Assembly (NCBI GenBank): GCA_922989275.2
Contig: OV277869.1
Span: forward strand, 18,499,189-18,563,188
Reading direction: 5' to 3'
From: Gari tellinella
Lineage: Eukaryota; Mollusca; Bivalvia; Cardiida; Psammobiidae
DNA length: 64,000 nucleotides
Part shown: piece by piece, positions 10,701-62,398 of the stretch
Layout: the number at the start of each line of letters is the position of its first letter
Position numbering within the stretch: position 1 is the stretch's first letter
Translations under genes and position numbers: made by a program
Notes under the pieces: generated by a model
The model's database searches: none
Told to the model about the DNA's origin: nothing
What the model saw: only the letters and a program-made list of their open reading frames with translations

Positions 10701-13700
10701 TACAATAACTGCAGATTCACCATTACTTCTCTGGGTTATTCAGCTAGAAAATTTAAGAAATCAAAAGCTATAATGATCAAACATGGTCGCAATAATTAAA
10801 CAGTAAAGCTTTATGATGTTTGCATGCCATGCATAGAAGCAATATTTGATACTGTAAGCTTGTTAACTGTTATATTTTCAATGACAACAATAATGCTATC
10901 ATTCAGGGGAGAAAACTCTGGATATACTGTCCTATTTCATTAGGTAATTATCTAACTTTGGATATCCATCTTTCCAAAGATCTTAAAAACTTGTGACTTT
11001 ATAAATATATCTACCAAAGAGCTCCAGATAAGGCGGGTATTTCCAATACTTACTTCTTAATGCACGGCTCAAGATATGTGGAGTATTTCAAAATCTAAAA
11101 TCTTTATACCTGCACCAAACTCTATGGTGTGAATACTCAATAGAATTGTCTCAAAGAGAAGATTCTGAGTAATAACACCATAGGGTTTAGTGCAGACATG
11201 TTGGAAAACTTGAAGATTTACTCCCTCTTATCTGAAGCCCTGCTTCATGTCTCCACCAAATCCTATCTTGTAACCACTCAATAGAATCATCTTTCCAGCT
11301 GAGGCAATAACCATTTACTCCATAGCCTGTTTCTAATATTCAAGATAGGTGAACACTTAAAGCAGGTGAAAAGTAAAGCAGAATGTGCCTTAAGGCACAT
11401 TCTGCTTTACTTCCCACCTGCTTTAAGCTATCATCTGCTAAAATATAGAACATATTTCTTATGATACATATTCATTACCGTATAAATTGGAACTATTTTC
11501 TTCGGTGGAGGAATAAATTAAATGTGTAAAAGGTGTTTCCATGGAGTAATTGGTTAAAGGATACATAGTATCTGGAACCCGTAATGATCTACAGAAGTAT
11601 CTCGAACCCTTAATAATCTACAGAAGTTTCAACTTGTTCATGATACTAATCTACATGTATGTATTAAGACAATCATAGGCACAACAGATAATCTACTCAT
11701 CTATTACTAAATTGACTGAAAACTGGATCAAGAAACTAAAGATAGTTCCAAGAAAATGATTAGCACATATTTAGATAATATTTCTTCCAAATCTTGTTCG
11801 TCAAACCTTAGTGATCTAACTGACCATTTTATGAAGACGTCTTTAACTCTAAGCATATCGGGTAAAACCATGATAACCTTTGCAAACTGTTTGGATCCTG
11901 ATAAGACACCGTGTAACATGGCATCTCATCTGGATCCAAACTGTTTGACACTCTGAACCTATTTTGATTTTTTTTTTGAAAATTATTTTTTTGAACAACA
12001 GCAGACGACAATTGTTGCAGACGAAAAAATTACCCAGCATGCAAAGAGCTAAAGACAGATTAATTGCTACCTCCTGCATTGCTTTATATCTGCAATATAC
12101 CATGTTTGCATCCTTTCCTCTATATAAGGAAGAAAGATGAATGTAAATCAGAAAGCTCCAAAAGTAGCTTTCTGCTTTACTTTCATCTTTGCTTTAAGCA
12201 GTCCAGACTTGCTTTAAACACATCAGAAAATAGTAAACTGTTGATTTGGCAATTTGGGTTTTTGAGGAAAGGGTTTTAGAAAAATATTCATATATCTTCA
12301 AATGGATGAATGGGTTCATCACGGCTCCAAATAAGAGGAGTATTTCAAAAATTAAAATCTTTATGTGTACATTTAAATCCTATGATGTCACTACTTATTA
12401 GAATTGTCTAGTCGAGATGATTCTAATGAGTAGTATATAACACGAAAGGATTAAACGCTGTCTTGAAGGAAATAATGTTGAATTTGTTTAGTTTACTCTT
12501 TCTTATCTGGAGCCCTGGGGCCCGTCTTACGAAATCTTGTACGGCATAATATTGTCATAAGTCAAATTCTAAAATCCTCAATTATTATTTATTTCTCCAT
12601 CTATTCCTGTCTTGTGACATCTCTTTGGCATCGTCTTTTCAAGATGATGCCAAAGAGATGTCACATAACAGTATTAAATCAGAAATTAGATTTAAAAGTT
12701 TTGACTTATGACCCTTTTCATCGTATGACCTTTCGTTAGACGGGCCCCTATCTTTTACACAGGTTCCTCTGTATCTGTACTTCTAGGAATTCCACTGTAA
12801 TGTCAGATAAATAAGCACCAATATTCAAATGTCTGCCCACAAAAGCATGCAACAAAAGACAGAAGAAACAAATTAGTAGTATGCTAATTACAAATGAAGC
12901 TATCTCATTGGTTCAATCATGCAGCGGGGGGTTATGATTGGCTATCAGTTTGGCTAAGGCTGTTATGACTTACTGGTATGGTATGGGCTCGATGAGGTAT
13001 GGGAGAATCCTGCAGTTGATTTACATATTCAAATCTATTACATTTGCATAACAAAGCATGTGTACATTTGCATATTCATGAGTTAAACAATTGTTTACTT
13101 TCTATTGTGTGTATCTGTGTATAGATAAAAATTACGATAAATGTCAGTTTGAATTACAGGAAAACCTGTATGTAAATAGTATATTTCATCACTTTTGACT
13201 GACAATCTTGAAACCATCATTAAACAAAAATTATGAGAAAAAATAATAAACTTATAATTGATTTCATTCTTATCATGTTCCAACTTAAGTAATCTGTGTA
13301 ATAACATTCTCTGTAAGTTTTGAAATGAAATATGTTCAACCAATAATACAGAACTATATGAACATTACAAATATCACCTCCTTAAAAACATACAATAAAT
13401 ATTAAAGATTAAAAACAATTAACATTCAAGACTTAAATAAACCCCAACAAACATGTACAAAATGTAATTATATACATAAAAATTATATATGTTCTAAAAT
13501 AGTCTACTAAATGAATCTTCTACTGAGTACATGTACATTTCATTTTCATATTACATCAATACTGCCACAATAGATCGCAAACAGCATAGACCCGGATCAT
13601 ACCATATAGCACCTCATCAGGATCTATAGATTCGTAGCTTAGGTTAAGTTAAGATCGCAAACAGCATAGACCCCGATCATACCATATAGCACCTCATCAG

Positions 13701-16700
13701 GATCTATAGATTCGTAGCTTAGGTTAAGTTAAGATCGCAAACAGCACAGACCCGAATCATACCATATAGCACCTCATCAGGATCTATAGATTCGTAGCTT
13801 AGGTTAAGTTAAGATCGCAAACAGCACAGACCCGAATCATACCATATAGCACCTCATCAGGATCTATAGATTCGTAGCTTAGGTTAAGTTAAGATCGCAA
13901 ACAGCATAGACCCGAATCATACCATATAGCACCTCATCAGGATCTATAGATTCGTAGCTTAGGTTAACCCTTTACCCCATAGCCTGTTTCTAACTTTGAA
14001 GACATATGATCACTTAAAGCAGGTTGAAAGTAAAGCAGAATGCGTCTTAAGGCGTATTCTGCTTTACTTTCAGCCTGCTTTAAGCTTCCACTTGCTAGAA
14101 TAAAGAAAATATTCTTTATGATACATATTCATGACCGTAAAAATTGGAACTATACTAATGAGTTGACTCAACATTGGGTTGGTACAGACTTAAAGGAGAA
14201 TTAACCCAATACATATAAATACGCCTTTTTACGCCTTTAATTTATGTCTTCACTGAAAAGTGAAAACATTAATGAACTTGCACCAAAAGAAATAAATTTA
14301 TATCCTAGCAGATGGAAGCTTAAAGCAGGCTGAAAGTAAAGCAAAATGTGCCTTAAGGCACATTCTGCTTTACTTTCAACCTGCTTCAAGAGGTCACCTG
14401 TCTTGAATACTAGAAACAGGCTATGGGGTAGTGGGTTAATGTGAAACTTCTGGTTTAGCTCCCTCATATAGTCTAAAGCCTTGCTGTTTGTGAAGTCTAA
14501 CAGTGACATGGCCCATACAGTGGAGAAGACGTTTAATTCTTTTCCGTTTGAATGCAAAAGCCGATATGCATTGCAATAAAATGTAGATTTTTTTTTTGGA
14601 CAACTTTTCCTTTTAATCTAAGAAGCAAACAATTTGAAGCTATAGGTTTTAGCGTAAAGGTGTTTATTGGGAAAGAAAAACGTCTTCTCCTCTGTAGATC
14701 ATTCTATACAAGGCTCCAGTAGGTAATCTGAACATTTTCAACATTTTCTTCTTTATGCTTCCACTAAACCCTATATTGTGACCACTCGTTTGAATCGTCT
14801 CTTTCAGAGGATTCTGATGAGTCAGGTCACAACATAGGGTTTATTGGAAATTGGTCCTTGAAATATTCATATTATCTGGTGCCCTGTCTATAGAATGTAG
14901 AAGCTTATAACACAGTATTAGTGATTAGTTACTTCACATTACACAATCAACACACACAAACGCACACACACATGAATAACATAAAACCTACAAAACAATG
15001 ATTATTCATCATTTACAAGTAATCAGCAGGCATAATTTGCCAGCTGAATGATAAAGCTAAAATAGAAATTCCCAATACCTTGGTTGTATACCTTATGATT
15101 GATGTATTGGAACTGACACGTCTAACTAATTAGTGTAGCAGCAGTCTGATCAGGGTCTACAAGTCCAATTAGGTCAAGGTCAAGGTCAAAATCATGGTTG
15201 GATAATATGGGTGAATTGGTAGTGGTCAAAGGCAACAACTGTACAAAATATTGTAATTAATACTGTTGATGCCAGATGAAACGATAAAATCTAGTTTTCT
15301 AAGAAATAGGCCATTTTCAATACTCTAAGTCCAAATAAGCCTGAGGTCAATTTCTTTATTTGTTATGATTTTTCCTCGCTTTTAACAGGATTTCAGTCAT
15401 ATTGCGACGTCCAGCTAATTACTGGTAGAGGAGGACCACAGAGGCCCTTTATGCACCGTTTCAGGTACAAATTGGCAACGGGGTAGGCTAAGGTCAAAGT
15501 CAAATGTTTGGTGATATTGGTGGATGGGGAATGGTCAAAGGCAACAGCTGTATAAAGTATCCAAGTATTTGTGTGAGCGGTGTTGATGTTAGAAGAAATA
15601 CCTCTTACACAGGGACAGGACGATAACTATAATGCCTCCGCATCTATAAATGCCAGGGGCATAAAAAGTTTCAAGGGAGGAAGTATAGATGTTGCGTGTT
15701 TCTTTCATTTGAAACAATTCCTAAACTTATTTCTTCATTTACTGACTGCACTGAAAGGGACCACTTTTAATGTAATATGACATCATGTCTCGGAAGTCGC
15801 ATATAAGTGTTATGACCTATGATAACTCTTTTCAACACTATGTACCTTTTGTGGGTTATTAGGTGCCCTTGTGGATCTTTTTAGTTACAAAACATGAACC
15901 AGTCTTTTTGGAATCCTATGTAGTTTAATAATTACTGCTCTAAATTAGCAGAGCCCTCTGATCTTGGTCTACACTGTTTGCAAATGTAAAGGGTATATTT
16001 TAAACAAGTTCAGGTTTCACACAAGATCCACAAGGAAACCTTATAACCCACAATAGTTACTCAGTGTTGAAACGGTTAAGACAGGGTATAATGACCTTGT
16101 ATACCTGTTAAACCCATAAAATAATTACTCTTGCAAATGGTTTAGATGCAGATCAGATGTGAAGTTAATCAGCGTCAAATCATGATCCAAACTGTTTGTC
16201 TCTAGGATCTTTCTTCAGAAAATACAGAAAACAAGTGAATGTAAGAATTTTAGCAAACAGTATTTCTGTAGCAGACATCATTTTGTACAGAAGGTTTAGG
16301 TGTGATAGTCTCAAATCTTATCGATATAATTTATCAAACGAGATTAAAGTTAAACCCTTCAAATACTCGAATAACCATTACATCACAGAATTTTAACCCT
16401 GTTCACTATGCAGGCATATTTGAAAACTGTTGCAAACAGTTTGGATTCAGATGAGACGCTGAATAACTTGGCGTCTAATCTGGATCCCAACTGTTTGATG
16501 CTATGATTATGTTTTCTGAAAGAAAATTACTTACTGTTACATTTTGAGAATTATTGCTGACAGCAAAGTTTGCAGACAACAATGACATAACTTGCAGAAT
16601 GTTACGAGTCTTCCGTTTTCTGATAAATGAGCGGTTATTTTCACTCTTAAGATGGTTGCGCCATAGACAAACAGTGTAGACATAGATCAGAGGGCTCCTT

Positions 16701-19700: not shown

Positions 19701-22700
19701 TCTACACTGTTTTCAAAATGTATTGAGTATATTTTAAACAGATCCATGGTGTTAAAATATTTTATTCTTTGCTGGTAATTTTTTCATCTGCAACAATTGT
19801 TGTCTGCTACTGCTTTGAAATTGATTTTTCAAAATAGGGTCAGATAGTCAAACAGTTTGGATTCTGATGAGACGTCTCATTATTTGACTTTTTATCATGA
19901 TCCAAACTGTTTACAAAATTTATCCTAGTGCCATTGCTATCATGCTAATTAATTGATAAGCTGATTACTTTACTTTTGTTAGATACTATCAATGGATTGC
20001 ATTTGTAAAGCAAAATGATCTATTTGATGCATATTTTACATCTATAGGCCAAAGTATTTATTTCATGTACACTGCTAGTATAACTCAATTTGGAATTCCT
20101 AGTCTTCATGGTAGAAAACAGAGGAGTTCCAAATGAGAGAGACAGATTCCTTTACAGTTATCTCCCTTGTTATCCTTTGAAATGGACCAAAACTGTATAA
20201 ATACCAGTATTAACTCAGCTATTAGCTCCAGACAAGAAAATAATACAAAAGATTATAACAAATTAAGAGTAATATAATCAGGGCTGCTATAAATTGATCA
20301 AGAAAATCCTAAGATTTCCAATTTTTCAATCCCGATTTCTTAAAGCAAGTTGAAAGTAAAGCAGAATGCACCTTAAGGTGCAGTCTGCTTTACTTTCAGC
20401 CTGCTTTAAGCTACCTTCTGCTAGGATTAAAACTGAAGATTTAGGAAAAATCCAGAGAAATGGCAGCTTTAATTTACTCTACCATAATTATGTATGAAGG
20501 GCTTCATCATCTCCATTTTGTATAATGCAAGGGAGGTAACTGCTGTGTGGAGTATAAGAATTACTTCACTAATCACATGACTTATCATGCAAATTCTACC
20601 TGTCACATGTTTCTACTAGTCACATGGTTATTCAACTACATTTATGAATATTCATGGCTCATCCTAAGACTGTATTTGGACCTTCATTAGTTTCTATGAC
20701 AAAAATGTCTTAATCTAACACATGTATTGAATTTCTGGGCAGAAATGACTAAAGCAACATATTCTACAGCTTGAGACTAAAGGTGAGTCCAAAAGAAATA
20801 TGTGGGCTTGATCTGCAATCCAACCTGTTAACTAAGCCTTCCCCCATAGGAGCTCCTTTTAGCGTTTTAATTTATTCCTCCACTGGAGAAAATAATTCCA
20901 ATTTATAGTCATGAATATGTATCATAAGAAATACATTCAACCTGCTTTAACCCATTCCTCCCTGAAACCTCAAATGGAAAATTCTAGTTTTCAATTAAGC
21001 CATGACCTTGACCTCTGACCCATTGATATAGGCGTTGAACGCAACAAATCGTCTTTGTCAGATGAACTGTGACTTTGAACTTTGATTCATGGTCATAGGA
21101 GTTAAACAGGACACATCGTCTTTGTCTGGGGAATATTTGTACCAAGTTATTTGAAATCCAATGACCCATATGAAAGTTACAGCCCAGACACAAAATTTGT
21201 GACAACAAATCTTATCCTGTAACCTTGACCTTTGATTCATGGACAAGGGAGTTGAACACAATACATCTTCCTTGCCTGGTGAATATTTGTGCAAATTATT
21301 TTGAAATTCATTGACAAAAACCAAAGTTACAGAATGGACACGAAATTTGTGTTGGATGCATGCAAGGACAGACGGACACTGCGATTACTATATATGCCTG
21401 CCTTCGGGAGGCATATGAAAGTATATTTATGGAAAAATAGATTAATCATGTCTTAGTTGAGCCATCAATATAAACAGTATACCAACCTCTAGATCCTCTA
21501 AATCTCGCTTCTAACCCAGGTAAGCAAAATTCAAAAAATACAGAATTAATAATCTAATGAAACAAATAACTTATCAACACAACACAGAACTAATATCTAC
21601 AATAATGACATGGGATCATAGAATAACTATTGTCACACTAAGGAACACAATGCATGTATTTAAAAGTATGACAAACAGTACAGACCCATTTCAGAGAGCC
21701 CTCTTATATGGGTCTACACTGTTTGCAAAGGATGTATATAATCGGTAAACAGAGCTCCAGATAAGGGGAGTATTTCGAAAGCTAAAATCTTTACTTCTGC
21801 AATAAACCCTATAGTGTCGCTACTCATTAGAATCGTCTCTTAGAGACCATAGGATTTGGTGCTGAATAAGTGAGAAAATGTTAGATTTGTTCAGTTTACT
21901 CCCTCTTATCAGGAGCCCTGTGTAAGTGTTAACAAGAACCATTCATTTTCAAAGAATTGTCACATTCATTTACAGTAGTTAGGTCATATTGACCGAGAAA
22001 TTGCTGTTTTAGCTGAAAAGTAAAAGTTATTAGTAACAAGGTCAAACTTTACATTATGTATTACATTCTGGCTAGACCCAGACACATCATGTCAAGCAAA
22101 AGATACTGTTATATTAGAAATGCATTTATCCCATTACCTCATAAATAAGACCTTTTATGCCTTTCATTTAATCTTCAAATACATTTGTAGTTACAATTTA
22201 TAAAGTCATGAATATGTATCATAAGACATAATTTCTATACTCTAGCTAAAGATAGCTTAAAGCAGGCTGAAAGTAAAGCAGAATGTGTCATAAGTTACAT
22301 TCTGCTTGTACTTTAAAGCTGCTTTAAGTGGTCATCTGTCTTCAAAACTAGATACAGGCTATTAGTCTGGTAGCAGATAATGATATTTTAGCTTAACCTT
22401 GCTTGGAGTTGTATAGAAAATGTTTTTGTGGTTTTTGGTAGAATAGACCCTCAGCATCAAGGATCCGATGTATGACCGCCGGTCATCCTTGAGCGTTTCC
22501 AGATATTCAAGATGGCGTCCAAGATGGCCGCCAGCATGTATCTGGCTAACTGTTAGGTTTGATTCAATAAGCTATAACGGAATTTTCAGCAAATTATAGT
22601 TCAATTTAATCTTTGATGACATAATTAAAGTTCAAAATAGAAATAAAAATAATCTATAATTCAAAATGGCGTCCAAAATGGCCGACAAAGACCATTTTTA

Positions 22701-25700: not shown

Positions 25701-28700
25701 CCACATGATAAGTGTCGCTCATACGAGCTTGTTATTCACTTTTTTATTGTTTATTGTTTGAGGATGTAATTTGCCTCCCTGTCCTCAGAGATCACACAAT
25801 TACTGAAAATCGCATCAGTCAGTCGTCTTCAAATCTCAAACCCCTTGTTCTCCGAAGCTGCTTTAATCATCTCGGTTATCACTCCTGATAGGCCAGCGGC
25901 CTTGCAGTATATCATCTTGTCAAGAGTTATGCACTTCTTATACAAGATGACCACTTTTGTAGTGACTGACTTTGACAGTAACTGTACCAAAGTTCTGTTT
26001 ACTTTGGTAATTCAGGAGTAAAGATGTGCAATTTTTTATATTTGAAATTATATGTGTGATGTCATTCTTTCTTATTCTACTCTATGGTTAAGCCAAAAGA
26101 CTGTTCAGTCAAGTGTCTGTGTAGCCATGTACTCATTCAGCAATATTTCAAAGATATGATGATTCTTTGCAGCAGCAGTACTAGCTTAGAAACTTACATA
26201 ATACATGTTAAAAGGCCTGATGAAAAGGAATACTGAACAAAGTTTTATACTGAAAGATACTGTACACAGTTATCTGGTTTCAAAGAGGTGCCACCACATC
26301 CTCAGGAGACTTGCATCCCAAGAAAGTTATTGGTATCCATTCTACCAATTTATTTCCCTGTTCCTAAGAAGCTCACATGTAATTGAACTATTTAACAAGA
26401 AAGGTGACATGTGGTGACAAATGTCACAGTAATGCAAACACAGAACTTTACTTTTGTACGATAATTTCAGCATTCTTTGCTTACAAAACAGTGCAATTTA
26501 TATATTAAAGGTAGGTAATTGGGTTCTATGAACTAATCTATAATATTTGAGTTTTGACTTGACTAATTACTTTTCTGTTAATCTGAAATATTTATTGCAT
26601 TTTACATCGTTATGCAAGAACTATCTCAATGTACACTTAAGCTGTATGGTTTTTATGTATACTCTATTCTGGTGACAGTCTCTTATAATTCATTTATGAA
26701 TGAATTAATCGCGATCTTTTCACGCTTTATTATTAATTATGAACAATTATATTATCACGACGGGGAAAAATTGGAGCAAATCGTAGCCTTGTAAAGCAAC
26801 GCACATACTTTGCATTTTATTCTACATAAAAAAGTACTTTGTCGGCCATTTTGGACGCCATTTTGAATTATAGATTATTTATTTCTATTTTGAACTTTAA
26901 TTATGTCACAAAAGATAAAATTGAGCAATAATTTGCTGAAAAATCTGTTAAAGCTTATTGAATCAAACCTAACAGTTAGCCAGATATATGCCGGCGGCCA
27001 TCTTGGACGCCATCTTGAATATCTTAAAATGCTCAAGGATGACCGGCGGTCATACATCGGATCCTTGATGCTGAGGGTCTATTCTACCAAAAACCACAAA
27101 AACATTTTCTATACAACTCCAAGCAAGGTTAAACGTGTCCGCGGCCGGACTATATGGGATAAAGGTAAACTACAGATCATGCAGTAAGTATTGACCTATA
27201 AGTAATATACATAGAAGACATTATTCTTTCCCAACAAACATGTTTGTGTTAAAACAATTACAATGCTCCCTCCCCACAGGGCCACAACGGCAAGTCCCTC
27301 CTTACAATAACGCTTGCCGCTGTACCCCAATCAAGACAATTATGTCTAACCTTTTCATGACCTATCGTCTGCTTAAAATTGTCATCTACTGTTTTTCTCA
27401 AAGTCACATATTGGGACATTTTGAAAGAAAAAAACATAATGCTGAGTGACAAACAGCTTGAATCAAGATCAGATGCCACGAAGCGTGGCGTCTGATCTGG
27501 ATTCAAGCTGTTTGCAAATGTAAGCCAATGTCCCTCCCTATAACAACTCCATCCGAACAACACACACAATGTTGTCTCCTACTGGGTGTTATTGTAGAGA
27601 GGGAACACTGTAAGTCCATTGCAAACAGTTTGGAGCCTAATCATTGTTTATATGCCATGTACAAATTTGTATATGGTCAGGCTTCAACCTGTTTTCCACT
27701 CAATGTTCAATTATTTTATTAACAATTTCAATTATTCTGGTGATAAATTGAGTTGAGTTTTACAGAGCTAAGGGGAGTATTTCACAAACTAAAATCTTTA
27801 TTTCTGCATTAAACCCTATAGTGTCACTACTCATTAGAATCGTTACTTCGAACTGATTCTAATGAATAGTACCGTCATAGGATTTGGTGCTGAAATGAGT
27901 AAGCTGGATTTGTTCAATTTACCCCCTCTTATCTGGAGCCCTGGTTTTATGAATACATGCATGACTATTCAACAAGAGGAGGAATAAAAAAGGACTTTAG
28001 ATTGATTACCGTACCCTACATGGTCAAACAATTTCTATCTAATGCAGGGCTGCCATTTCTCCGGATTTTTCCTAAGTCTTCGGATTTTTATCCTAGCAGA
28101 TGGAAGCTTAAAACAGGCTGAAAGTAAAGCAGAATGCACCTTAAGGCGCATTCTACTTTACGTTCAACCTGTTATAAGCAGTCATGTGTTTTCAAAACAA
28201 GAAACAGACTATGGGGTAAAGGTACGGTTAGTAAAATTGCATCTGAAAAAATGAAAATTTGAAATCTTAGGATTTTTATTATCAACTTATGGCAGCCCTA
28301 CTAATGCCATCTGTATCATGAACAAGACAGTGCCCCCTGGTTTGTTTTATCATATCAAATGATATAACTACTCTCCTCAATGACACCTAATCTTCCAAGT
28401 TTTTAAACAATCCACCTCTGTTTACATTTACTTTGTAAGAAAATTCAAACAAGTACTTCAAACTCACTGTGTGCCCAAGGTAAATCTCCCCTTTCTTTCA
28501 CTCTTTAATTACAGCACCCAATCCACCGTAGCGTAGATATTACACGTAGAAGGTCATCACTTAACCCATTATCCCATAGATATACCTTTTTATGACTTTA
28601 TACAGTCAAGAAAATATATCATAATAAATATTTCCTATATCCACACAGATAGAGGCTAAAGCAGACTGAAGTGCAGAATGTGCTTTAAAGCGCATTCTGA

Positions 28701-31700
28701 TTTACTTTCAACCTGCTTTAAGTGGTATTCTGTCTTCAAAACAAGAAACAGGCTATGGGGTAAAGGGTTAAGCATGTGCAAAAAAACGCAAAATATTGTT
28801 TTCTTCTGTTATCACATCGATTCCATCATACATGTGAATTTATTTTTTGGGTAGTCTTCTTTTAATAAGCAAGTTAAAATGACTTGTTCTTGCTAGATTT
28901 TTACATTTCTTCAGAATATTTGAAAATAGAAATACTTTTCTTTTCATTCCTTATATTTCAGAAAGGTTTTCTGTAGGGACTTTTGATAAACACAGACAGA
29001 TTTTCAATAAATTGTTCATTTATACTGAAAGGGATGTTTCCATTTTTGTACCACCCTGATGTAAGGCCGAAACGTTGGTTAATAAAAAACATTCAGCACA
29101 ATATAATACTGTGTGATCCTACTCTTCTCGTGTTTTATTGTTTAAAAGGGATATTGATAGTGGCAATTATAATGCCTTATTTTTCCTTAATTTATAAACT
29201 TTAAACGCAAACAGGGCAGACCTGATTGAAAATACCATATGTTCCAACATCTTATGTGTTGGTCAATGTCCATTATGGGACTAGCTGACACTAGAACTTA
29301 ATGGGTTAAGCTGGCTAAAAGGTTTCCCTTGTTGACACTTTATGTCAGCATGACAGTTAGTAAGTGGTCTGTTTGATTAGCTCATAACTGTTGTAAACTG
29401 AACCCTAACTGAGAACATACAGTAAAACCTCTCTATCAGGACCACTTACTTGAGATAATTATAAGGTGTTTATGACAGGTGACTGCTTAAAGCAACGTGA
29501 CAGTAACACAAAAAGCTCCTTAAGGAGCTTTCTGTTTTACTGTCACCTTGTTTTAAGCAGTCCCCTGTCTTTTATACAGAAGGGTTCCTATAGGAGCCGT
29601 CAGATCAACATCTAAACTGTTTGTCACACATGTTATATATTTCGGAGAGAAAAAAACAACATTAAAGGTAAATGAAAATTGATTCCTTATTAGACAATGA
29701 AAGTCCCCGGCATTTAAAAGTTCAGCGTAAAATTATTTAGGAATATTAGAAGCTTTATAAGGCAAAAAATAAGAAACTGTTTGAAATGTTCTGTAGTATT
29801 GTGACCTGCTTAGTTTACATATTTTAAAACTAAATAACATTAATAAATTTATTAGAATGGAAAATAATTGGGATCATAAACTTAAAACACAGTTATTGTT
29901 TGAACATATGGCAGAACCCATTTTGCCCAAACAAAATGTTTGGCCTACACAAAATAAAACCAATTTGCAGTGAAAAATACAACAATTCATATCAAGGAGT
30001 CACTCTTGTACCGGTATTAGGTATGACAACCACTAAATGTAAAACCCCTTACAATTTTATTCTTGCACATGCTTGCTTCATGCAAGATTAAAATATTGCA
30101 GAAGCTCCTTACGAGACATCAACACTGTTTCATTGAGTGGTCTGTTAACCCTTTACCCCATAAATACGCCTTTTTACACTGATGAATATAATTCAACTTT
30201 ATACAGTCAAGAATATGTACCATGGGAAATATTTTCTATATCCTAGCAGCTGGCAACCTAAATGCGAATCTGCTTTACTTTCAATCTGCTTTACTTGCTC
30301 ACTTGTGTTCAAAGCTGCATAGAACCAGTCTATGGAGGTAATGGGTTAACACAAGTTTTACTGGGTTTTATTACATGTATTCAAATCTTATATCACAATA
30401 GAATTTAGAAATTTGGGACAAAATTGACATCACAGGTGGTAGAAAGCTATGACAGCAGATAAAAGATATATTCAAAATATTTATACACAGATCACTGTTT
30501 TATTTATATAGCTAAGATCTAATACAGTAAGGATTTAAAGCATTTCATCATGGTCATCTGCCAGTGATTGATGGCATACAGGCCGACCATTACATTTTAA
30601 CTATTCAAAGCAGCAATTGACAAGAAGCTGCATAAACAATCTTTGAAACCTTTTCCCCCATAGCTTGTGTTCAGCAATGAAGACAGGTGGTTGCTTTAAG
30701 CAGGCTGAAAGTAAAGCAAATTACTCCTTAGCCCATTACGCCATAGATACACCTTTTTACAGCCTTAATTCATTCCTTCCCTGAAGAAAATGGTTCTATT
30801 TGATACAGTCATGAATATGAACAGTAAGACATTTTTTATATATCCCAGTAGATTGTAGCTTTAAAAGAAGGGTTAATGTTTTTTTGTTTTTTTTTATTTT
30901 ACGTCGCTTTCAACAGTATTTCAGTCATATCACGACGTGCAGCTAATTACAGGTGGAGGAAGACCCCAGAAGTCCTTTAGGCACTGTTTCAGACACAAAT
31001 CGACAACTGGGTAGAACCACTGACCTTCCGCAAGCCAGCTGGAAAGCTTCCCCACATGAAAAATATGAACGACCCTACTGGGATTCGAAATCACAGCGGT
31101 GAGGAGCTTAGTGATGTAAGTCACAGTGACTATACCACTAGGCCACGGAGGCCCCTCAAAAGCAGGGTTAAAGTAAGGCAGAATGCAACTGAAAGAGCAT
31201 CCTGCTTTATTTTCAACCTGCCTTGATTGATAACCTGTCTTCAAAATTAAAAACAGGCTATTTGGTTAGGAGCATTCTGCTTTACTTTCAACCTGCTATA
31301 GGTAACAGCAGCTAGGATATGGGAAATAATAATATATATGTATTGCAATTTCGTAACTTATTAAAATGAAACTATTGTCTTCAGTGGAGGAATAAATTAA
31401 ATGTGTAAAATGTGTATCTATGGAGTATTGGATCAAAATAAGGTGAAACAAAACAGAAAGCTCCTTTCTGTTTATTATCACCCTGCTTCAAGCAGCGATC
31501 TGCCTTAACCCTTTGAGCCCTAGTCCCGCATATAGGCGTCCTTTTCAAACAGTGTACATGTGAATAGTACACCTGTCCTGTGCAAACAGTGAAGACCCAG
31601 ATCAGAGGGCTCCGAAAAGAGCCCTCTGATCAGGGTCTTCACTGTTTGTCATAATGCCAAAAATGGACAAAAACAACCCTTAAAAGTCAGAAATGGACTA

Positions 31701-34700: not shown

Positions 34701-37700
34701 ACGTAGCGCGGCGATAATTCATAAACACTGTGTGCAAAGCCGAGCGAAGCCGGAGCATTTCCGTAATAATTTGTCTTCGATCGAAATGTCAACAAAACAG
34801 ATTTAAAAGTCGACTTGTTTCCACCAATTTCACGGATTTGAAAGCAATGTTGTCTCAATAATCATCGGGATTACTTCTTTTTATAGGTTTAGATTACGAA
34901 TGTGTCTACATTTTCAGGTTTTAAAAGTGTGCGATTTTGGCAATTTGACAGTAATGTTGGGACTTTAAAGTAAAATAAGATGCATTTGTGGGGTAAGGGG
35001 TTAAACGATTTTTCATACAATTTTTTTTCCAATCGCTGCTTTGAATAGAAAAAAAAATATGATACTCATTAATTGCACACAGAGAGTTCAAAATAATCAT
35101 TCATCGGCTTCAGTCTAGACAATTATCATTCAGAAGAACTAGCATATACAGTAAAACCTCTCTAATACGGCCACTAATTTGTGTTAATTATTAGGGGTTA
35201 AGAACAGGTGAATGCTTAAAGCAAAGTGACAGTAAAACAGAAAGCTCCTGTAGGAGCTTTCTGTTTTACTGTCACCTTAGTCTAAGCAGTCACCTGTCTT
35301 TTATAAAATCAATTAGCCTTATTTTTAGTGGTCGTAATAGAGGAGGTTTACTGTATATTATGTGGCAGGGTATCTTGTCTGTGCTGGAACGTCTCATCAA
35401 AAATGCATAGGTCAAGCAAGCTTAGACATCAAATCAATAGGCAAGTGTCAAAAGTAAAGATTTCAATATGAATATATCTTATCTACTGTCACTTCCACAC
35501 CTCGGGTAGAGTTTCTGCCTTAGAGTCTGTTTGCAGTTACATTTCACTACCTTAACAAGTTTGTTTTTTTGGGGTTTTTTAAATATAATTGGCTTTTAAA
35601 GAGACTGAAAACCAAATGGTGTATTTGTATGATAAAAAGAAAACAATCAAATAAAAGTAAATTTGTGGCATTATGGTACATCTGGCATTTTGTTAGCCAA
35701 GTGGTTTAGGAGCCTGATTCAATTTTTGGAGATTATCAATATATATGACCTTTAAATTTCATTAAACATTCTTAATGAAGCTTTCAACAGTCGTGGAACA
35801 GCCACATTTCAAAGCAGAATGCAACTTTCCTAGTCCCAAAATTATTTGTTGCGTTGTATTACAAAGAAGGTTTTACGTCCAAGCAGCCCTGATCAACACT
35901 TGCTCACTTTCAGTGGGACATCCGAATTATTTGTACACAAAACAAATTGAAAGTAGAAACTACAAATTTTATTATTATCATATTTACCTCATAATGTAAT
36001 GCTTATTCACTGTAAGTTTATTATTTTAAATCTTTTCACTGTTTTATCTAATACGGTTCTCAAAATTAATCAATTTTTCATTTTAATATCAATGATATTG
36101 AGTGTTGTTTTATTGATCGGATGAGTACTGAGTCAAAGTCTTGAACTCGATGCTGACTTATATAGATAAATTCAAATCAAAGATTTGAAATAATCAAAAA
36201 TGGCTTTCCTCTCATCACTAAAGGTAGATTACACATTAATTTTGTTCTACCGTAAGCTGCAGGGTGTCTTTAAGACTTTCTTTGAAACTTCGCTTTAATG
36301 AATGCCATAGCAATTTAATTTTTTGGAGTGAATACATTTAACCTTGACTATTCAGATAGACGACACTTGAAACCTTTAATTTTCTTGATAGCTACCAGTT
36401 TAATTATGCACTCACATAAACACACATTAATCTTTAAAGCATAATTATGTTAAATATTTAAGCAAAATTTAATAGTTTTATTCTATCAATATAAACAGCT
36501 CAGTGATAACCCTTACTATGAAAGAAACCAGTATGCGTAGCATTAACAGTGTAGAACCTGATCAGGGGTCTTTTTCAGAAGCGCTCTGATTAGGCTCTAC
36601 GCTGTTTGTAATACTTTAAATTACATGATGTAGTTTGGAGACAAAACCCTTGAGATACACTTAAATTGGTCATTTATTAGAAATTGGAGGACTGGTTGTA
36701 AGGGTTATCTTTGTCATGCAATCATATTAATCAATGTCAAGCATACACAACCAACATAATGTTTAGGCACAGTTTCAACAATACAAATATAATACAAGAT
36801 TCAAATTCTCCAACCAATTAAAACAAAACACTTCAAGTTTAATATTTTCTCGCAACAGTCTTACTTTTTCGAGTATGTTTCTTTTCTGTTGTTTGAAATT
36901 CAATAGAACACAAAGTCATTAAAATTGAAATTGTGGTATCTGTTTAGAAATTGAAAAGTTTTTAATTTTTAAGAGAAAACAAAAGAGTTACGGTTCATGC
37001 TTTCATATAAAGTAAAACCCTTCTAATACGACCACTTAAAAGTAGATTAAATGACTGTATAAACAACAGGTGACAGCTTAAAGCACGAACGTAAAACAGA
37101 AAGCTCCTAAAGGAGCTTTCTGTTTTATGTTCACCTTGCTTTAAGTGGTCACCTTTCTTAAACATAATAACATAAACACAATTTAGCGGGCGTAATAGCG
37201 AGTTTCTACTGTATATACTTTGAATTGGATTTTCTAGCATTTTGTATAAATCCCCTTATTACATTCTTTGTCATTTATTCTTTCATTCATCTGTATATCA
37301 ATATGTTCAATATCATGTTTGTCAAAACTATTTGGTCCAATTTTCAGACAGTACCATTGCATAAATAGTTAACCCATTACCCCATAGATTGCTTCTAGTA
37401 TTTCAGATAGTTTACCACTTAAAGCAGGCTAAAAGTAGAGCAGAATGTGCCTTAAAGCACATTCTGCTTTACTTTCAGCCTGCTTTAAGCTGTCATCTGC
37501 TAGGAAATAGAACCATTTCTTATAGAACATGGTAAAACTATTTTATTCAGTGGAGGAATAAATAAAAAGTGTAAAAAGGTGTTTTTATGGGGAAATGGGT
37601 TAAATACATGTAGTAGTGACAAACTTAGTTCAGAGACCATTAATTGAAGAAATATTGAACCAGGTGGTCTTTAAAGATATGTGACTGCTTTATGCAGGAT

Positions 37701-40700
37701 ATAAGTAATGCAGAAAACTCCTTCACAAGCTTTAAGCATTACTTTTGTCCTGCATTAAACATCCCTAAAGAAACCTCAACATCTCTTCAATAACTGGCCA
37801 CTGAACATAGATTTACTGTATATTTTCTATTTGTTTAGAACTGAACATTTGAACTTTTAAATACAGTAAAATCTTTATTAAGACCAATAAAACTAAGCCT
37901 AATTGATTGTAAAAAAAGACAGGTGACAGCTTAAAGCAAGGTGACAATAAAACAGAAAGCTCCTGAAGGACTTTTCTATTTTACTGGCATCTTGCTTTAA
38001 GCAGTCAGCTGTCATAAACATCTAATAATTAACACAATTTAGTGGTCATAAAAGAGATGTTTTACTGTATGTACTGTAGCTGATATTTGCTGTATTTTTT
38101 TGTTTTCAATTTCACATGCATATTGACTAAAAGGCTTACGGACCCATTGTATCTCAGACGTCTTAAAGTCAACTTAAAATATAGCACTGGCTTTTATCAA
38201 AAGTTCTAGCCACTGCTAACAAAATATTTGCACTAATGTTTGTCCGCACTTTTGACCCTTTTCTTCTGCAGAAATGCTAAGGACTCCTCTACCTTTTTCT
38301 TTAACCCTTTTCCCCATAGAAGTGACTTTCATCGCATTTACTTTTTTCCTCCACTGAAGAAAATAGTTCCAATTTATAGTCATAAATATGCACCATAAGA
38401 AATGTTTTCTATATCCTAACAGTTGATAGCTTATAGCTGGCTGAAAGTAAAGCAGAATGTGCCTTACAGCACATACTGCTCTACTTTCAACCTGCTTTAA
38501 CCCTTTACCCAATAACCTATTTACAAAATTAAAGACAGGTGATCACTTAAAGCAGGTTGAAAGTAAAGCAGAATGTGCCTTAAGGCACATTCTGCTTTAC
38601 TTTCAGCCTCCTTTAAGCTAAAATCTAAAGCTATATAAAATATATGTAATGGTAATTGTAAATGAGGGTATAAACTGGAACTAGTTTCTTCAGCGGAGGA
38701 ATAAATTAAATACGCTAAAACTCGCTTCTATGGGGGAAAGGGTTAAGTGGCCACTTGTCTTCAAAATTAGAAACAGATTATGGGCTAAAGGGTTAAAATA
38801 AGCACAACTAAGTTTAATGAAAGTAAATTTTATGCATGTGAAAGCTTAACCTTTTCCTCACTAAAATTTCAAATGGACAATTCCAGTTCTCAATTTAGTC
38901 TAGTCAATTTTTGACATTATAATTATGGTTGTTTTTGTCAATGTATTGCACTATGAGATAAAATTTGATAAACAGTGCAGACCCTGATCAGAGGGCTTCT
39001 TAAGGGGCCCTCTGAACTTGGTCTTCACTGTTTGCATAGGGCAAGTGTACTCTGCACATGTACTGTTCGCAAATGATGAACTAGGGTTCAAAGGGTTAAA
39101 ACAGGATGAAAGTAAAGCAGAAAGCTCCTACAGGAGCTTTCAGCTTTACTTTAATCTTGTTTTAAACTGCCACCTGCCTTAAACATTGTTGGATATCAGT
39201 GATTCACACATTTGACAATATGACAAAGGGTTAAACCTTGACCTGAAACCAGTCTAACTAGTTCAAGTATTTAAAAACAAATTTGATTTAAACCAGACAA
39301 TTATGCACCTTTGAAATGTATATCTATAGATTTAAATCCTGATAACACATAACTCCTGGTTTTCTCAATAGACATTGATCTCTTCCTCTTTTTAACGATA
39401 GGTAACATTTTTCTCAATTTCTTTAATTTAAACCTGTTGTAATTTCAAGTAATTAAATAAAAAGAATGTATGATTGGACTTAATTTTTTGTTGTCTGTTA
39501 CTAGTTTATAATAAAAGCCTGAAAAAAAGCAAAATTAGAATTCTACATAATTGATTACATGTTCAGTAAAACCTCTCTATTACATCCACTAAAACGAAGG
39601 CTAATTGATTGTATAAAAGAAAAGTGAAAGCTTAAAGCAAGGTGACAGTAAAACAGAAAGCTCATAAAAAAGCTTTCTGTTTTACTGCCACCTTGTTTTA
39701 AGCAGCCAATTAACTGTCATAAACACCAAAACAGTTACATCAATATAGTGGTCATAGTACAGAGAGGTTTACTGTATACTCTTGGTATTAACTCTTTCCT
39801 CCCTGAAACTTTAAATGGACAATTCCAGTTTCGATTTTAGTCTAGTCCATTTCTGGCATTTAAGGGTTGTTTTTGTCCATTTTTGGCCTTATGAAAACAG
39901 TGAAGACCCTGATCAGAGGGCTCCTTTTGGAGCCCTATGATCTGGATCTTCACTGTTTGCAAAGGACAAGTGTACTATTCACATGTATACTGTTTGAAAA
40001 GAACGCCTATATGCGGGACTAGGGTTCAAAGGGTTAAAAATGTGGAAGAGGGCGGAGTGGGGCTCAAAGGCACTTCTGTGGAGAAAATGGTTAAAACAAG
40101 AAACTAGACTAGATTTGTACAACATACTTAATATACTCATGAAATTTATCTACTGACTAGTCTTCAAGTCTAACAAAAAATCACCATGACATATGCCTTT
40201 GAGGCTTTTGTAACTGCCATGCAAAATTATCATCACTACTACTAGTGTAAGTATATGAATGAGAATGTTTTAAAAAGGTTTTAGGGTATTTTTTAAGCAT
40301 GAGCAATTTAGTGTAAAAGCATTTCAATAGAGAAATTCAATTCAGTTCATGGACAAGGAAGTGTTCAATCCATTTTAATGATTCCTGAACTCCTTCCCTA
40401 TATAAACATTTGGGTTCACCATATACGGTAAACCTTGAAAGTAGTAAAGTTGAGTGTAAGATATCCTGTCATTTACAGTCAAAACATGATTGTGTAAGCT
40501 GTCTTTGTTTGAAGATAAGTTTTTAAAGATATATGGCAATTGCTAAATGCAGAACAAAAGTAAAGCAGACAGCTATATCATACCTTTTTATTTGTTTAAG
40601 TCTCTTCAGACCACCATAATGCTGAGTGAATGATCTGCAATAGTTGTTATCTTACACAAAGTAGGACCAAAATTAACAAAAATTACTAAAGAAAATATGT

Positions 40701-43308: not shown

Positions 43309-43783
43309 TTAACGCCTTAATTTATTCCTCCACTGAAGAAAATTGTTCGGCTTTAAACAGTCATGAATATGTACCATAAGCAATAGAGTCCATATCATAG
43401 CAGATGATACCATGAAGCAGACTGAAAGTAAAGCAGAATGTGCCTTAACTCATTACCCCATAGCTTGTTTCTTGGTTTGAAGATAGTTGACCACTTAAAG
43501 CTGGTTGGAAGTAAAGCAGAATGTGCCTTTAAGGCACATTCTGCTTTACTTTCAGTCTGCTTTAGGATACCATCTGCTAGAATATAGAATGTATTTCTTA
43601 TGATATATAATCCTGACTGTATAAATTGGAACTACTTTCTTCAGTGGAGGAACAAATGAAAGGCGTAAAAAGGTGTATTTATGGGGTAATGGGTTAAAGC
43701 GCATTCTGCTGCATGCTTTACTTTAACTCAACCTGCTTTAAGTGGTCACCAATATTCAATACTAGAAACAGGATATGGGTTAA
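43309..43783 (-). mobile_element. MITE-A copy (host) split by a second MITE-A
   Basis: The long arm ('ttaatttattcctccactga') leads to AAGCAGAATGTGCCTTAA (43448). The host resumes after TTAA 43697 with AGCGCATTCTGCTGCATGCT and ends GGATATGGGTTAA. Here the insertion hit the TTAA at the very tip of the host's stem. Confidence 0.88.
43449..43693 (+). mobile_element. MITE-A nested at the stem tip of another MITE-A
   Basis: CTCATTACCCCATAGCTTGT to TTTATGGGGTAATGGG, between TTAA 43445-43448 and 43694-43697. Stem AAAGCTGGTTGGAAGTAAAG around GTGCCTTTAAGGCAC. Confidence 0.92.
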
Positions 43784-47300: not shown

Positions 47301-47688
47301 CAGGGGCCCGGATAAGGGAAGTTTTATGTCTACACCAAACCGTGAGACGTGACTACTCGTTAGAATAGTCTCGATAGGACTGAGTGCAGACATCAGGGCT
47401 GTCATAAAGTGATCATAAAAATCCTAAGATTTCAAAGTTTCAATTTTTCAGACGCAATTTTACTAATCGTACGTTTACCCCATAGTCTGGTTCTAGTTTT
47501 GAAGACACGTTACTGCTTAAAACAGGTTGAAAGTAAAGCAGAATGCGCTACTTTCAGTCTGTTTTAAGCTACCGTCTGCTAGGATAAAAATCCGAAGACT
47601 TAGGAAAAATCCGGAGAAATGGCAGCCCTGAGACATGAAGGAGAAAATGATGATGTACTTGAGTTAACTCCTTGTTATCTGGGGCCAT
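47301..47688 (+). mobile_element. MITE-B copy split by MITE-H
   Basis: 'caggggcccggataagggaa', then ACTACTCGTTAGAATAGTCT. The right part resumes at 'agacatgaaggagaaaatga' and ends CCTTGTTATCTGGGGCCATG. Confidence 0.78.
47394..47630 (+). mobile_element. MITE-H copy with 6-bp target duplication, carrying MITE-A stem
   Basis: CAGGGCTGTCATAAAGTGAT to GGAGAAATGGCAGCCCTG; AGACAT stands outside both ends. Inside it has MITE-A sequence from 'accccatagtctggttctag' through the stem (AACAGGTTGAAAGTAAAGCA) to 'gtctgctaggat'. Confidence 0.9.
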
Positions 47689-58655: not shown

Positions 58656-58952
58656 ATACTCAAACATGAGCCTACTTTTGAATGGGTGTAATATTTAGAT
58701 GTTTTGTAAGTTACTGAACCATTCAGTAATACTCAGTTACCAGAAATAGTTATATATGTATGATTGGCCAACAGAAAATGTTGAACAAGTTTTATCAATT
58801 ACTACTAAGCTATCCTATATATATGCAAACAAAATGAGAAAATAAGCCATACAAACCAAGGTAAATTTGCTAGTACATGAATGAATCTTTTATTGTTTGA
58901 AGAAATAAATTATAATTTATAACTCTCTCATATTTCAGAGGGCTGGGGGCAT

Positions 58953-59200
58953 TTAACCCATTGCCCCATAAATATGCCTTTTTATGACTTTAATTTATTC
59001 CTTAACTGGAGAAAATAGTTTCTCTTTATACAGTCATAAGTATGTATCAAGAGAAATATTTTCTATATTCTAGCAGATGTTTGCTTAAAGCAGGCTGAAA
59101 GTAAAGCAGAATGCTAAGGCGCATTCTGCTTTACTTTCAACCTGCTTTAAGAAGTACCTTGTTTTCAAAACTGGAAATAGTCTATGGGGTAACGGGTTAA
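58953..59200 (-). mobile_element. MITE-A copy
   Basis: TTAACCCATTGCCCCATAAA to TGGGGTAACGGGTTAA; stem AAAGCAGGCTGAAAGTAAAG around ATGCTAAGGCGCAT (centre shortened). Confidence 0.92.
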
Positions 59201-59644
59201 ATAATGCATAAATATATAAATTAAACAGGGAAAAATCATCATCAGAACAATATCTCCCTTTTTTAAATTACTAAAAAAATGAGGCAGACACAATAAATAA
59301 CGAAAATAGGTGAAAAGAACCCAATGTACAAAAACTGATGAATGGGTAAAAACAGTATTAATGGACTACAGCTTGCCATCACTAGAGTACAAAGATGGGC
59401 AGTGCAAAATGTGTATCAGGCACATCAAAATATATAAATAATAATTACATGAAACTGCCAATCATTTGAAATATACAACCATCTTTCCATATACATGTAC
59501 AGTAAAACAGGTGTTCATGGGGCTATCAATACTGCATATGTATCTTTTAACCCTTATCCTGCCGAAATATTGTCTGCTTAAAAATATTCTGTCTGCAAAT
59601 TTGGTAGAATTAAGATTTATACATTTTTAAATTGAAGAAACCTT

Positions 59645-62155: not shown

Positions 62156-62159
62156 CTGC

Positions 62160-62398
62160 TTAACCCAATACCCCATAAATACGCCTTTAATTTATTCCTC
62201 CACTGAGGTAAATAGTTAGTTTATAGAGTCATGAATATGTATGATAAAAACTATTTTCAATATTCTAGCAGATGGTAGTTTAAAGCAGGATGAAAGTAAA
62301 GCAGAATGCCCCTTAAGGGGCATTCTGCTTTACTTTCAACCTCTTTTAAGTAGCAACTTGTTTACAAAACTAGAAACAGGCTATGGAGACGGGATAAA
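62160..62398 (-). mobile_element. MITE-A copy
   Basis: TTAACCCAATACCCCATAAA start; stem AAAGCAGGATGAAAGTAAAG around GCCCCTTAAGGGGC; ends GAAACAGGCTATGGAGACGG. Confidence 0.9.

What the first reader, a model, noticed from the sequence alone, without database searches (positions are those of the whole stretch)
28046..28299. MITE-H: a CAGGG-ended element that has captured the MITE-A hairpin
Seen: CAGGGCTGCCAT...TGGCAGCCCT ends with 6-bp direct flanks (CTAATG) enclose a MITE-A segment from its outer 'ccccatag' region through the stem to 'ctgctaggat'. The copy at 47394-47630 has the same inner junctions, also with 6-bp flanks (AGACAT). The copy at 20281-20470 shares the right-hand junction. So one ancestral capture was followed by spread. 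The ends and duplication resemble hAT-type rather than TTAA-type elements. Inference: palindromic cassettes move between transposon superfamilies.
Basis: partly seen in the sequence, partly recalled or inferred. Interest (0 to 1): 0.78.

Follow-up and report, generated by a model that had tools for sequence, protein, structure and literature searches.

The report
Chimeric mini-transposon carrying a borrowed hairpin
A short jumping-DNA family in an animal genome is built from the ends of one kind of transposon and the hairpin middle of another kind, and the combined element has spread to thousands of places.

Summary
Confirmed and extended. MITE-H (28045-28300, 47394-47630, each with exact 6-bp duplications; 20279-20471, decayed) has CAGGG ends round a fragment of the TTAA-flanked MITE-A: the hairpin and most of the right arm and end. 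In the 1.6-Gb genome its left end has 22,842 near matches. All 60 fetched copies, taken as exact left ends, and all 8 found in another 200 kb carry the hairpin; 43 of 55 with a recognised far end have perfect duplications. One older copy, L092, keeps MITE-A's right end almost whole beside H sequence, so MITE-A most likely inserted at a TTAA in H and was then trimmed. Direction is A to H. Related hairpins form the centre of a third, TA-flanked family, MITE-B; three H-type copies hold another TTAA family's hairpin at the same place. MITE-A's hairpin core has four to five times fewer shared variants than its arms but equal private ones, in two samples; H1 copies do not show this. hAT membership fits ends and duplication; no transposase partner was identified. 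Chimeric MITEs have precedents.

The parts
28039..28044 (.). 6-bp target-site duplication CTAATG, left copy
28045..28300 (+). MITE-H copy 1 (CAGGGCTGCCAT ... ATGGCAGCCCTA)
28090..28222 (+). MITE-A-derived segment inside MITE-H copy 1 (ATCCTAGCAG ... CTATGGGGTAAAGG)
28107..28178 (+). palindromic core (hairpin) inside the captured segment
28301..28306 (.). 6-bp target-site duplication CTAATG, right copy
47388..47393 (.). 6-bp target-site duplication AGACAT
47394..47630 (-). MITE-H copy 2; 19 bp missing from the hairpin
47475..47585 (-). MITE-A-derived segment inside MITE-H copy 2
47631..47636 (.). 6-bp target-site duplication AGACAT
20279..20471 (-). MITE-H copy 3, decayed; same left junction, MITE-A right arm lost (a deletion it shares with genome copy L087:7655-7844), no target-site duplication seen at the expected ends
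20339..20427 (-). MITE-A-derived hairpin inside MITE-H copy 3
58952..59204 (+). MITE-A copy; its cassette groups with those of MITE-H in the cassette tree
62159..62391 (+). MITE-A copy; its cassette groups with those of MITE-H in the cassette tree
29418..29622 (+). MITE-B copy (TA-flanked, CAGTAAAACCTC ends) with a related hairpin as its centre
35147..35356 (+). MITE-B copy, same build
37009..37214 (+). MITE-B copy, same build
37862..38070 (+). MITE-B copy, same build
39562..39777 (+). MITE-B copy, same build

Best explanation
MITE-H is a chimeric non-autonomous DNA transposon. Its ends (CAGGGCTGCCAT, 6-bp target-site duplication) are those of a hAT-like element, probably of the hAT6 type. Its middle is a fragment of the TTAA-flanked, piggyBac-like MITE-A: the whole hairpin and most of the right arm. 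Shown: the build, the shared junctions, the duplications, the copy number. Inferred: a MITE-A inserted once at a TTAA just before TACGATTC in an H progenitor; a deletion then joined H's left arm to MITE-A at ATCCTAGCAG, removing MITE-A's left part; a later small deletion cut the last bases of MITE-A's right end in the lineage of subfamilies H1 and H2; and the chimera was moved in trans as a unit by a hAT-type transposase. Older H-type copies with another TTAA family's hairpin (MITE-D) end at the same H sequence, so this spot took up TTAA-element DNA in more than one lineage.
For: Build and junctions. 60 fetched genome copies: 56 of 60 match the left junction within 3 edits and 57 of 60 the right within 6 edits; the left misses are L033, L034, L044, L045 and the right misses L011, L029, L033, and by eye these belong to subfamily H2, an H1/H2 mosaic (L011) or copies cut short (L029, L033); by pattern or by eye all 60 carry MITE-A-type sequence beside the left arm. 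Of 55 with a recognised far end, 43 have 6/6 and 6 have 5/6 duplication bases (the script took, among candidate ends, the one with the best flank match); 20 of 55 are exactly 256 bp. In 200 kb not chosen by sequence, 8 of 8 left arms found by profile have the hairpin beside them. Nested insertion: copy L092:629-1112 (484 bp, flanks TACCCA/TACCCG) reads GTATGGGGTAAAGAGTTACAAGTACGATTCG, close to a whole MITE-A right end (GGGTTAA) followed by H sequence. Direction: H keeps 10-13 bases of MITE-A's 18-base terminal repeat; H cassettes group with 2 A cassettes (96/93); mean A-H cassette distance 0.223, A-A 0.219, A-B 0.425. Sister form with MITE-D: L006:2278-2611, L007:656-942, L073:5684-5821.
Against: In both trees the cassette of copy 3 pairs with a MITE-A copy (92/74, 93/73) and not with the other two H cassettes; the AU test does not reject H as one clade (p 0.48 and 0.37). 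Nor does it reject A as one clade (p 0.22). The uncut right end rests on one copy with two mismatches to the expected 14 bases. The junction pattern has six times fewer matches than the left end (3,734 against 22,842); in the unchosen sample 6 of 8 copies pass the left-end test but only 1 of 8 the H1 junction test, since H2-like copies have an indel there, so this is explained but was not seen in my exact-match sample. That sample favours young copies and comes from three contigs; L027 and L040 share flanks and variants and may not be independent. Of 12 hAT genes whose downstream 1.5 kb I read, none ends in MITE-H's ends. The MITE-D form rests on three copies, one complete, none with a clear duplication.
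Confidence: 0.8

Rival explanations
1. Mechanism rival: hAT-style repair filler. During repair of a gap left by excision, synthesis jumped to a MITE-A copy and back, as proposed for other captures; no MITE-A insertion into H was needed.
For: In H1 and H2 neither end of the fragment is an intact MITE-A end with TTAA. Filler DNA is present in most maize Ds-related elements (PMC3260210, abstract and passages).
Against: Copy L092 keeps an almost whole MITE-A right end beside H sequence; the same H position follows an intact GGGTTAA of MITE-D in L073.
Confidence: 0.12
2. Mechanism rival: an H element that already held a MITE-D hairpin exchanged it for MITE-A by recombination at short similarity between the right ends of the two TTAA elements.
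For: H-type copies with MITE-D at the same right-hand position. Of five copies with H2 right parts, two read GCGA before GGGG as MITE-D does where MITE-A reads GCTA, one reads GTGA and two CTA.
Against: Three copies of the D form only; the GCGA resemblance can be single substitutions.
Confidence: 0.2
3. MITE-A took its hairpin from MITE-H.
For: None found.
Against: H holds part of MITE-A's terminal repeat, which has no partner in H; in the window MITE-A arms are more diverse (mean distance about 0.36) than H arms (0.14-0.16).
Confidence: 0.02
4. Several independent MITE-A insertions or captures at a hot spot in H.
For: TTAA MITEs do enter the same kinds of site repeatedly: MITE-A inside MITE-A hairpins, MITE-D DNA in H. 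Copy 3's cassette pairs with a MITE-A copy in the trees.
Against: The left junction, which no target preference fixes, is the same in H1, H2 and copy 3 apart from one- or two-base indels.
Confidence: 0.06

Closest known systems
CMITE and CMITE-IN of Acropora corals (PMC2872659; abstract, passages and sections 13 and 17 read)
   Same: TTAA MITEs whose inner region is better conserved between families than the ends; a new mobile family (CMITE-IN) made by insertion of such a MITE.
   Different: The coral families in what I read are TTAA-type, the word palindrome does not occur in the paper, and CMITE-IN holds a full MITE copy; here a trimmed MITE sits between ends of another type.
MER6 (PMC6887750; abstract and section 2.4 read)
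   Same: A MITE with mariner ends and a foreign middle (a SINE domain) that spread with it.
   Different: Donor is a SINE, not another DNA-transposon MITE; one recipient family.
Maize Ds elements with filler DNA (PMC3260210; abstract and passages)
   Same: Non-autonomous hAT elements with hAT ends and unrelated inner DNA.
   Different: 8-bp duplications; filler varies between elements in some classes; not described there as the hairpin of another MITE.
hAT6 group (named in PMC12730594, passages)
   Same: 6-bp target-site duplications.
   Different: Membership of MITE-H could not be settled, since no transposase gene with its ends was identified.

Membership tests
hAT (hAT6 group) for MITE-H | 6-bp target-site duplication | tested here: met
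   2 of 3 window copies; 43 of 55 genome copies exact, 6 of 55 with one mismatch
hAT (hAT6 group) for MITE-H | short terminal inverted repeats beginning CAGGG (motif recalled) | tested here: met
   CAGGGCTGCCAT at one end and its near complement at the other end of the 256-bp consensus
hAT (hAT6 group) for MITE-H | mobilised by a hAT transposase | tested here: inconclusive
   the genome has at least 150 matches to PF05699, 150 of 300 candidates scored, several in open frames of over 700 aa; 1.5 kb downstream of 12 of them shows no MITE-H end belonging to the gene
canonical hAT for MITE-H | 8-bp target-site duplication | tested here: not met
   duplication is 6 bp in both window copies; the genome copies were scored at 6 bp only
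IS3EU for MITE-H | 6-bp duplication and termini TAYGG..CCRTA (as PMC12730594 gives for fungal families) | tested here: not met
   termini are CAGGG..CCCTG
piggyBac-like for MITE-A | TTAA duplication, ends CCC | tested here: met
   TTAA near the left end in 19 of 22 and near the right end in 13 of 22 copies; two nested MITE-A copies have TTAA at both sides (by eye)
piggyBac-like for MITE-A | piggyBac transposase | not tested
   none sought
Kolobok for MITE-A | termini 5'-RR and YY-3' after TTAA (PMC9587614, passages) | tested here: not met
   terminus after TTAA is CC
Tc1/mariner-like for MITE-B | TA duplication and CAGT ends | tested here: met
   by eye: TA at the left in 4 of 5 copies, at the right in 4 of 5
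Tc1/mariner-like for MITE-B | mariner-type transposase | not tested
   none sought

The most novel reading that the evidence does not exclude
The hairpin core is a portable part that different transposon families gain because it helps a source element to multiply: the core of MITE-A is held constant among source lineages while arms and even ends drift, related hairpins sit in TTAA-, TA- and 6-bp-type families, and one chassis (H) has carried hairpins from two unrelated TTAA families.
Probability: 0.25. Interest if true: 0.85.

Novelty: new variant of a known kind. Interest (0 to 1): 0.6.

Why it matters
It shows, with breakpoints, duplications and copy numbers, that short non-coding transposons can be assembled from parts of families with different ends and still spread widely. 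The contrast in MITE-A between constraint among source elements and ordinary decay after insertion makes an old puzzle, why the inner part of some MITEs is better conserved than their ends, open to a direct test of transposition with and without the hairpin.

Tried and rejected
Searches for the elements in other collections found nothing: a 21-base left-arm pattern in viral contigs, a hairpin pattern in viral contigs and in prokaryote genomes; no Rfam family at gathering threshold. Two further papers were opened for passages only and not used: PMC4732748 and PMC3942097.

Idea that the hairpin is itself a TTAA- or TATAAA-flanked mobile unit: the flanks in MITE-B proved to be part of an inverted, not a direct, repeat, since MITE-B is a palindrome along its length. 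A search of the window for empty outer palindromes found two hits, both of another sequence.

Idea that the hairpin arms co-vary because of structure: over families, cells with double changes and the covariation score exceed 500 of 500 shuffles, but within MITE-A alone double changes do not exceed shuffles (22 against mean 14.6, maximum 37), so the signal mostly separates families. In 50 H1 copies (5 H2 or mosaic copies dropped of 55) the core is not significantly poorer in shared variants (0.018 against 0.025 and 0.028, p 0.22); this goes against the functional reading, though H1 is young. Arm and core distances among 22 MITE-A copies are not correlated, so exchange of cores between lineages is not excluded as the cause of the uniform core.

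Idea that a hAT gene next to an H element (L092) was its autonomous partner: the H element there is a separate 484-bp insertion with both ends and near-matching flanks.

Six cassette loci in the window and 18 of 81 in the 200-kb sample have no recognised arms and were left unclassified. Some of the 46 window loci counted as MITE-A have an A arm near only because another MITE-A lies beside them, and one of the 46 (37675) has a B arm near as well. The tree used 47 of 48 aligned cassettes (one shorter than 70 bases dropped); one search used 36 of them.

For that reason nested insertion is now the favoured route, the odds for repair filler went from 0.4 to 0.12, for exchange from 0.25 to 0.2, and the overall confidence, which now includes the route, from 0.85 to 0.8.

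Full report
The window is part of a 1.598-Gb genome in 80 contigs. It has an ankyrin-repeat fragment and, below Pfam's cut-off, a 2OG-Fe(II) oxygenase fragment, and one protein with 59 relatives of which one carries an animal name, Ascaphus truei; by recall it resembles a bivalve, which I did not test. BLAST of copies 1 and 2 with 400-bp flanks shows that their similarity stops at the element ends.

The captured piece. MITE-A, aligned from 22 copies, is 254 bp with TTAA near its left end in 19 of 22 and near its right end in 13 of 22 copies. Two MITE-A copies lie inside other MITE-A hairpins with TTAA at both sides; with the inner copy taken out the outer one aligns along its length apart from small gaps. 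So MITE-A behaved as a TTAA transposon. MITE-H copy 1 contains MITE-A from ATCCTAGCAG to CTATGGGGTAAAGG, that is the hairpin, the right arm and most of the right terminal repeat, and nothing of MITE-A's left arm. A lone piece of MITE-A's terminal repeat inside H gives the direction A to H.

Genomic copies. The 41-base left end of MITE-H has 11,404 forward and 11,438 reverse matches with up to 3 mismatches, and none read backwards. I fetched 60 of the 100 listed places, all exact matches, the first 20 each on contigs C1, C2 and C4. The far end was recognised in 55; of these 43 have 6/6 and 6 have 5/6 duplication bases, the script taking the candidate end with the best flank match; 20 are exactly 256 bp. 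The left junction matched in 56 of 60 and the right in 57 of 60 at the stated tolerance; by eye the exceptions belong to a second subfamily, H2, or an H1/H2 mosaic, or are cut short. L011 and L052 join an H1 left part to an H2 right part. Three copies without most of the hairpin (L012, L024, L059) keep MITE-A sequence on both sides and are later deletions. A 37-base pattern over the H1 left junction has 1,891 and 1,843 matches, six times fewer than the left end. In 20 pieces of 10 kb taken at round positions on C3 and C5-C10, 8 left arms were found by profile and all 8 have the hairpin beside them; 6 of these 8 pass the left-end test but only 1 the H1 junction test, because H2-like copies have an indel at the junction. 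Copy 3 of the window shares its loss of MITE-A's right arm with one of the 8, L087:7655; the loss includes H sequence that the other forms have, so it is a later deletion.

How it entered. One H copy, L092:629-1112, found beside a hAT gene, is 484 bp long with flanks TACCCA and TACCCG, has another palindromic insert in its hairpin, and reads GGGGTAAAGAGTTACAAGTACGATTCG where H1 and H2 read GGGGTAAAGGTACGATT. That is MITE-A's right end, GGGGTAAAGGGTTAA, nearly whole, followed by H sequence. It supports insertion of MITE-A at a TTAA in H, with the right end trimmed later; it is one copy with two mismatches.

The hairpin in other families. A profile built from MITE-A hairpins finds 60 stretches at E below 0.01 in the window: 46 with a MITE-A arm within 140 bp, 5 MITE-B, 3 MITE-H, 6 with none. 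The reversed window gives 5 hits, the best at E 5.7. The five MITE-B hairpins match at E 1e-11 to 9e-17 on the better strand. MITE-B has CAGTAAAACCTC ends with TA, and its arms are inverted repeats of each other up to the hairpin. In the 200-kb sample there are 81 hairpins: 46 A, 9 B, 8 H, 18 none. The cassette tree separates the 5 B and 6 of 8 unclassified loci from A and H (98/86) and puts the three H cassettes with two A cassettes (96/93); within that set copy 3 pairs with an A cassette (92/74). AU tests reject neither A (p 0.22) nor H (p 0.48, and 0.37 with the right arm) as a single clade.

H-type elements with another hairpin. One right H arm in the sample (L073) had no such hairpin. It follows the right end of another TTAA family, MITE-D. 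L006:2278-2611 is an H-type element with both arms and the MITE-D hairpin, and L007:656-942 matches it over all but the first 25 bases. Aligned right junctions read CTATGGGGTAAAGG before TACGATT in H1, GCGAYGGGGTAAAGG in two H2 copies, and GCGAAAGGGTTA with variants in the D form. So DNA of two TTAA families adjoins the same H sequence. Two insertions at one TTAA or an exchange of interiors could do this; three copies do not decide it.

Conservation of the hairpin core. In 22 MITE-A copies the core differs from the consensus at 0.065 of sites against 0.171 in the left arm of the same copies, lower in 21 of 22 (CpG columns left out). Split by kind, private changes occur at the same rate in core and arms (0.034 and 0.041, p 0.31), while variants shared by copies are five times rarer in the core (0.025 against 0.128; by column p about 6e-11 with three alignment methods). 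The core is also poorer in shared variants than the ends. The test repeats on 21 near-full MITE-A copies of the 200-kb sample: shared 0.035 in the core, 0.173 and 0.130 in the arms (p 2e-10), private 0.039 against 0.036 and 0.034 (p 0.19). Thus copies decay evenly after insertion, but the source elements kept the core. Selection for transposition or exchange of cores among sources could do this; distances of arms and core are uncorrelated, which does not separate the two. In 50 H1 copies the effect is not significant (p 0.22).

Transposase. The genome has many hAT dimerisation-domain matches: 150 reported, 150 of 300 candidates scored, several in open frames over 700 aa. I read 1.5 kb downstream of 12 of them; only L092 has MITE-H arms, and these belong to the separate insertion above. 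The partner of MITE-H is therefore not identified, and most hAT genes were not examined.

What is known. Chimeric non-autonomous elements have precedents: CMITE-IN in corals, MER6 in mammals, Ds filler in maize. The coral MITEs also have an inner region better conserved than the ends. The inner sequence of a rice Stowaway element was found to enhance transposition (PMC3660474, passages). Five sequence strings of these elements occur in no paper of the held library, and the rows listed by the nine other literature searches (lists of 8 to 20 of often more papers) show no title or abstract start that describes this case; most subscription papers and Repbase are not in that library.

Noticed in passing
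38300-38796 and 43309-43783: MITE-A copies inserted into the hairpins of other MITE-A copies at TTAA (right-hand TTAA and central TTAA); the hairpin is a landing site for TTAA elements.
   Followed up: yes
L029 (genome copy): A MITE-H copy whose sequence stops matching at the TTAA of the hairpin, as if another element had inserted there.
   Followed up: no
L006:2278-2611, L007:656-942, L073:5684-5821: H-type elements carrying the hairpin and right end of a different TTAA family (MITE-D).
   Followed up: partly
L011 and L052: MITE-H copies that join an H1 left part to an H2 right part, suggesting recombination between subfamilies.
   Followed up: partly
L009-L068 (genome copies): Deletions of 8 bp or more in the 72-bp hairpin core in 11 of 50 H1 copies, against 5 of 50 in the right H arm and 0 of 50 in the MITE-A right arm.
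   Followed up: partly
about 31504-31647 and 39895-40037, also 38956-39098: A further TTAA family (TTAACCCTTTGA...) with its own palindromic centre; two copies are 94% complementary over 143 bases and lie against hairpins of the studied type.
   Followed up: no
13572-13971: Tandem array with an 80-bp period, ending where a MITE-A copy begins.
   Followed up: no
50872-51174 and 54725-55117: Exon-like open frames; the second matches 2OG-Fe(II) oxygenase below the Pfam cut-off, the first has no Pfam match.
   Followed up: no
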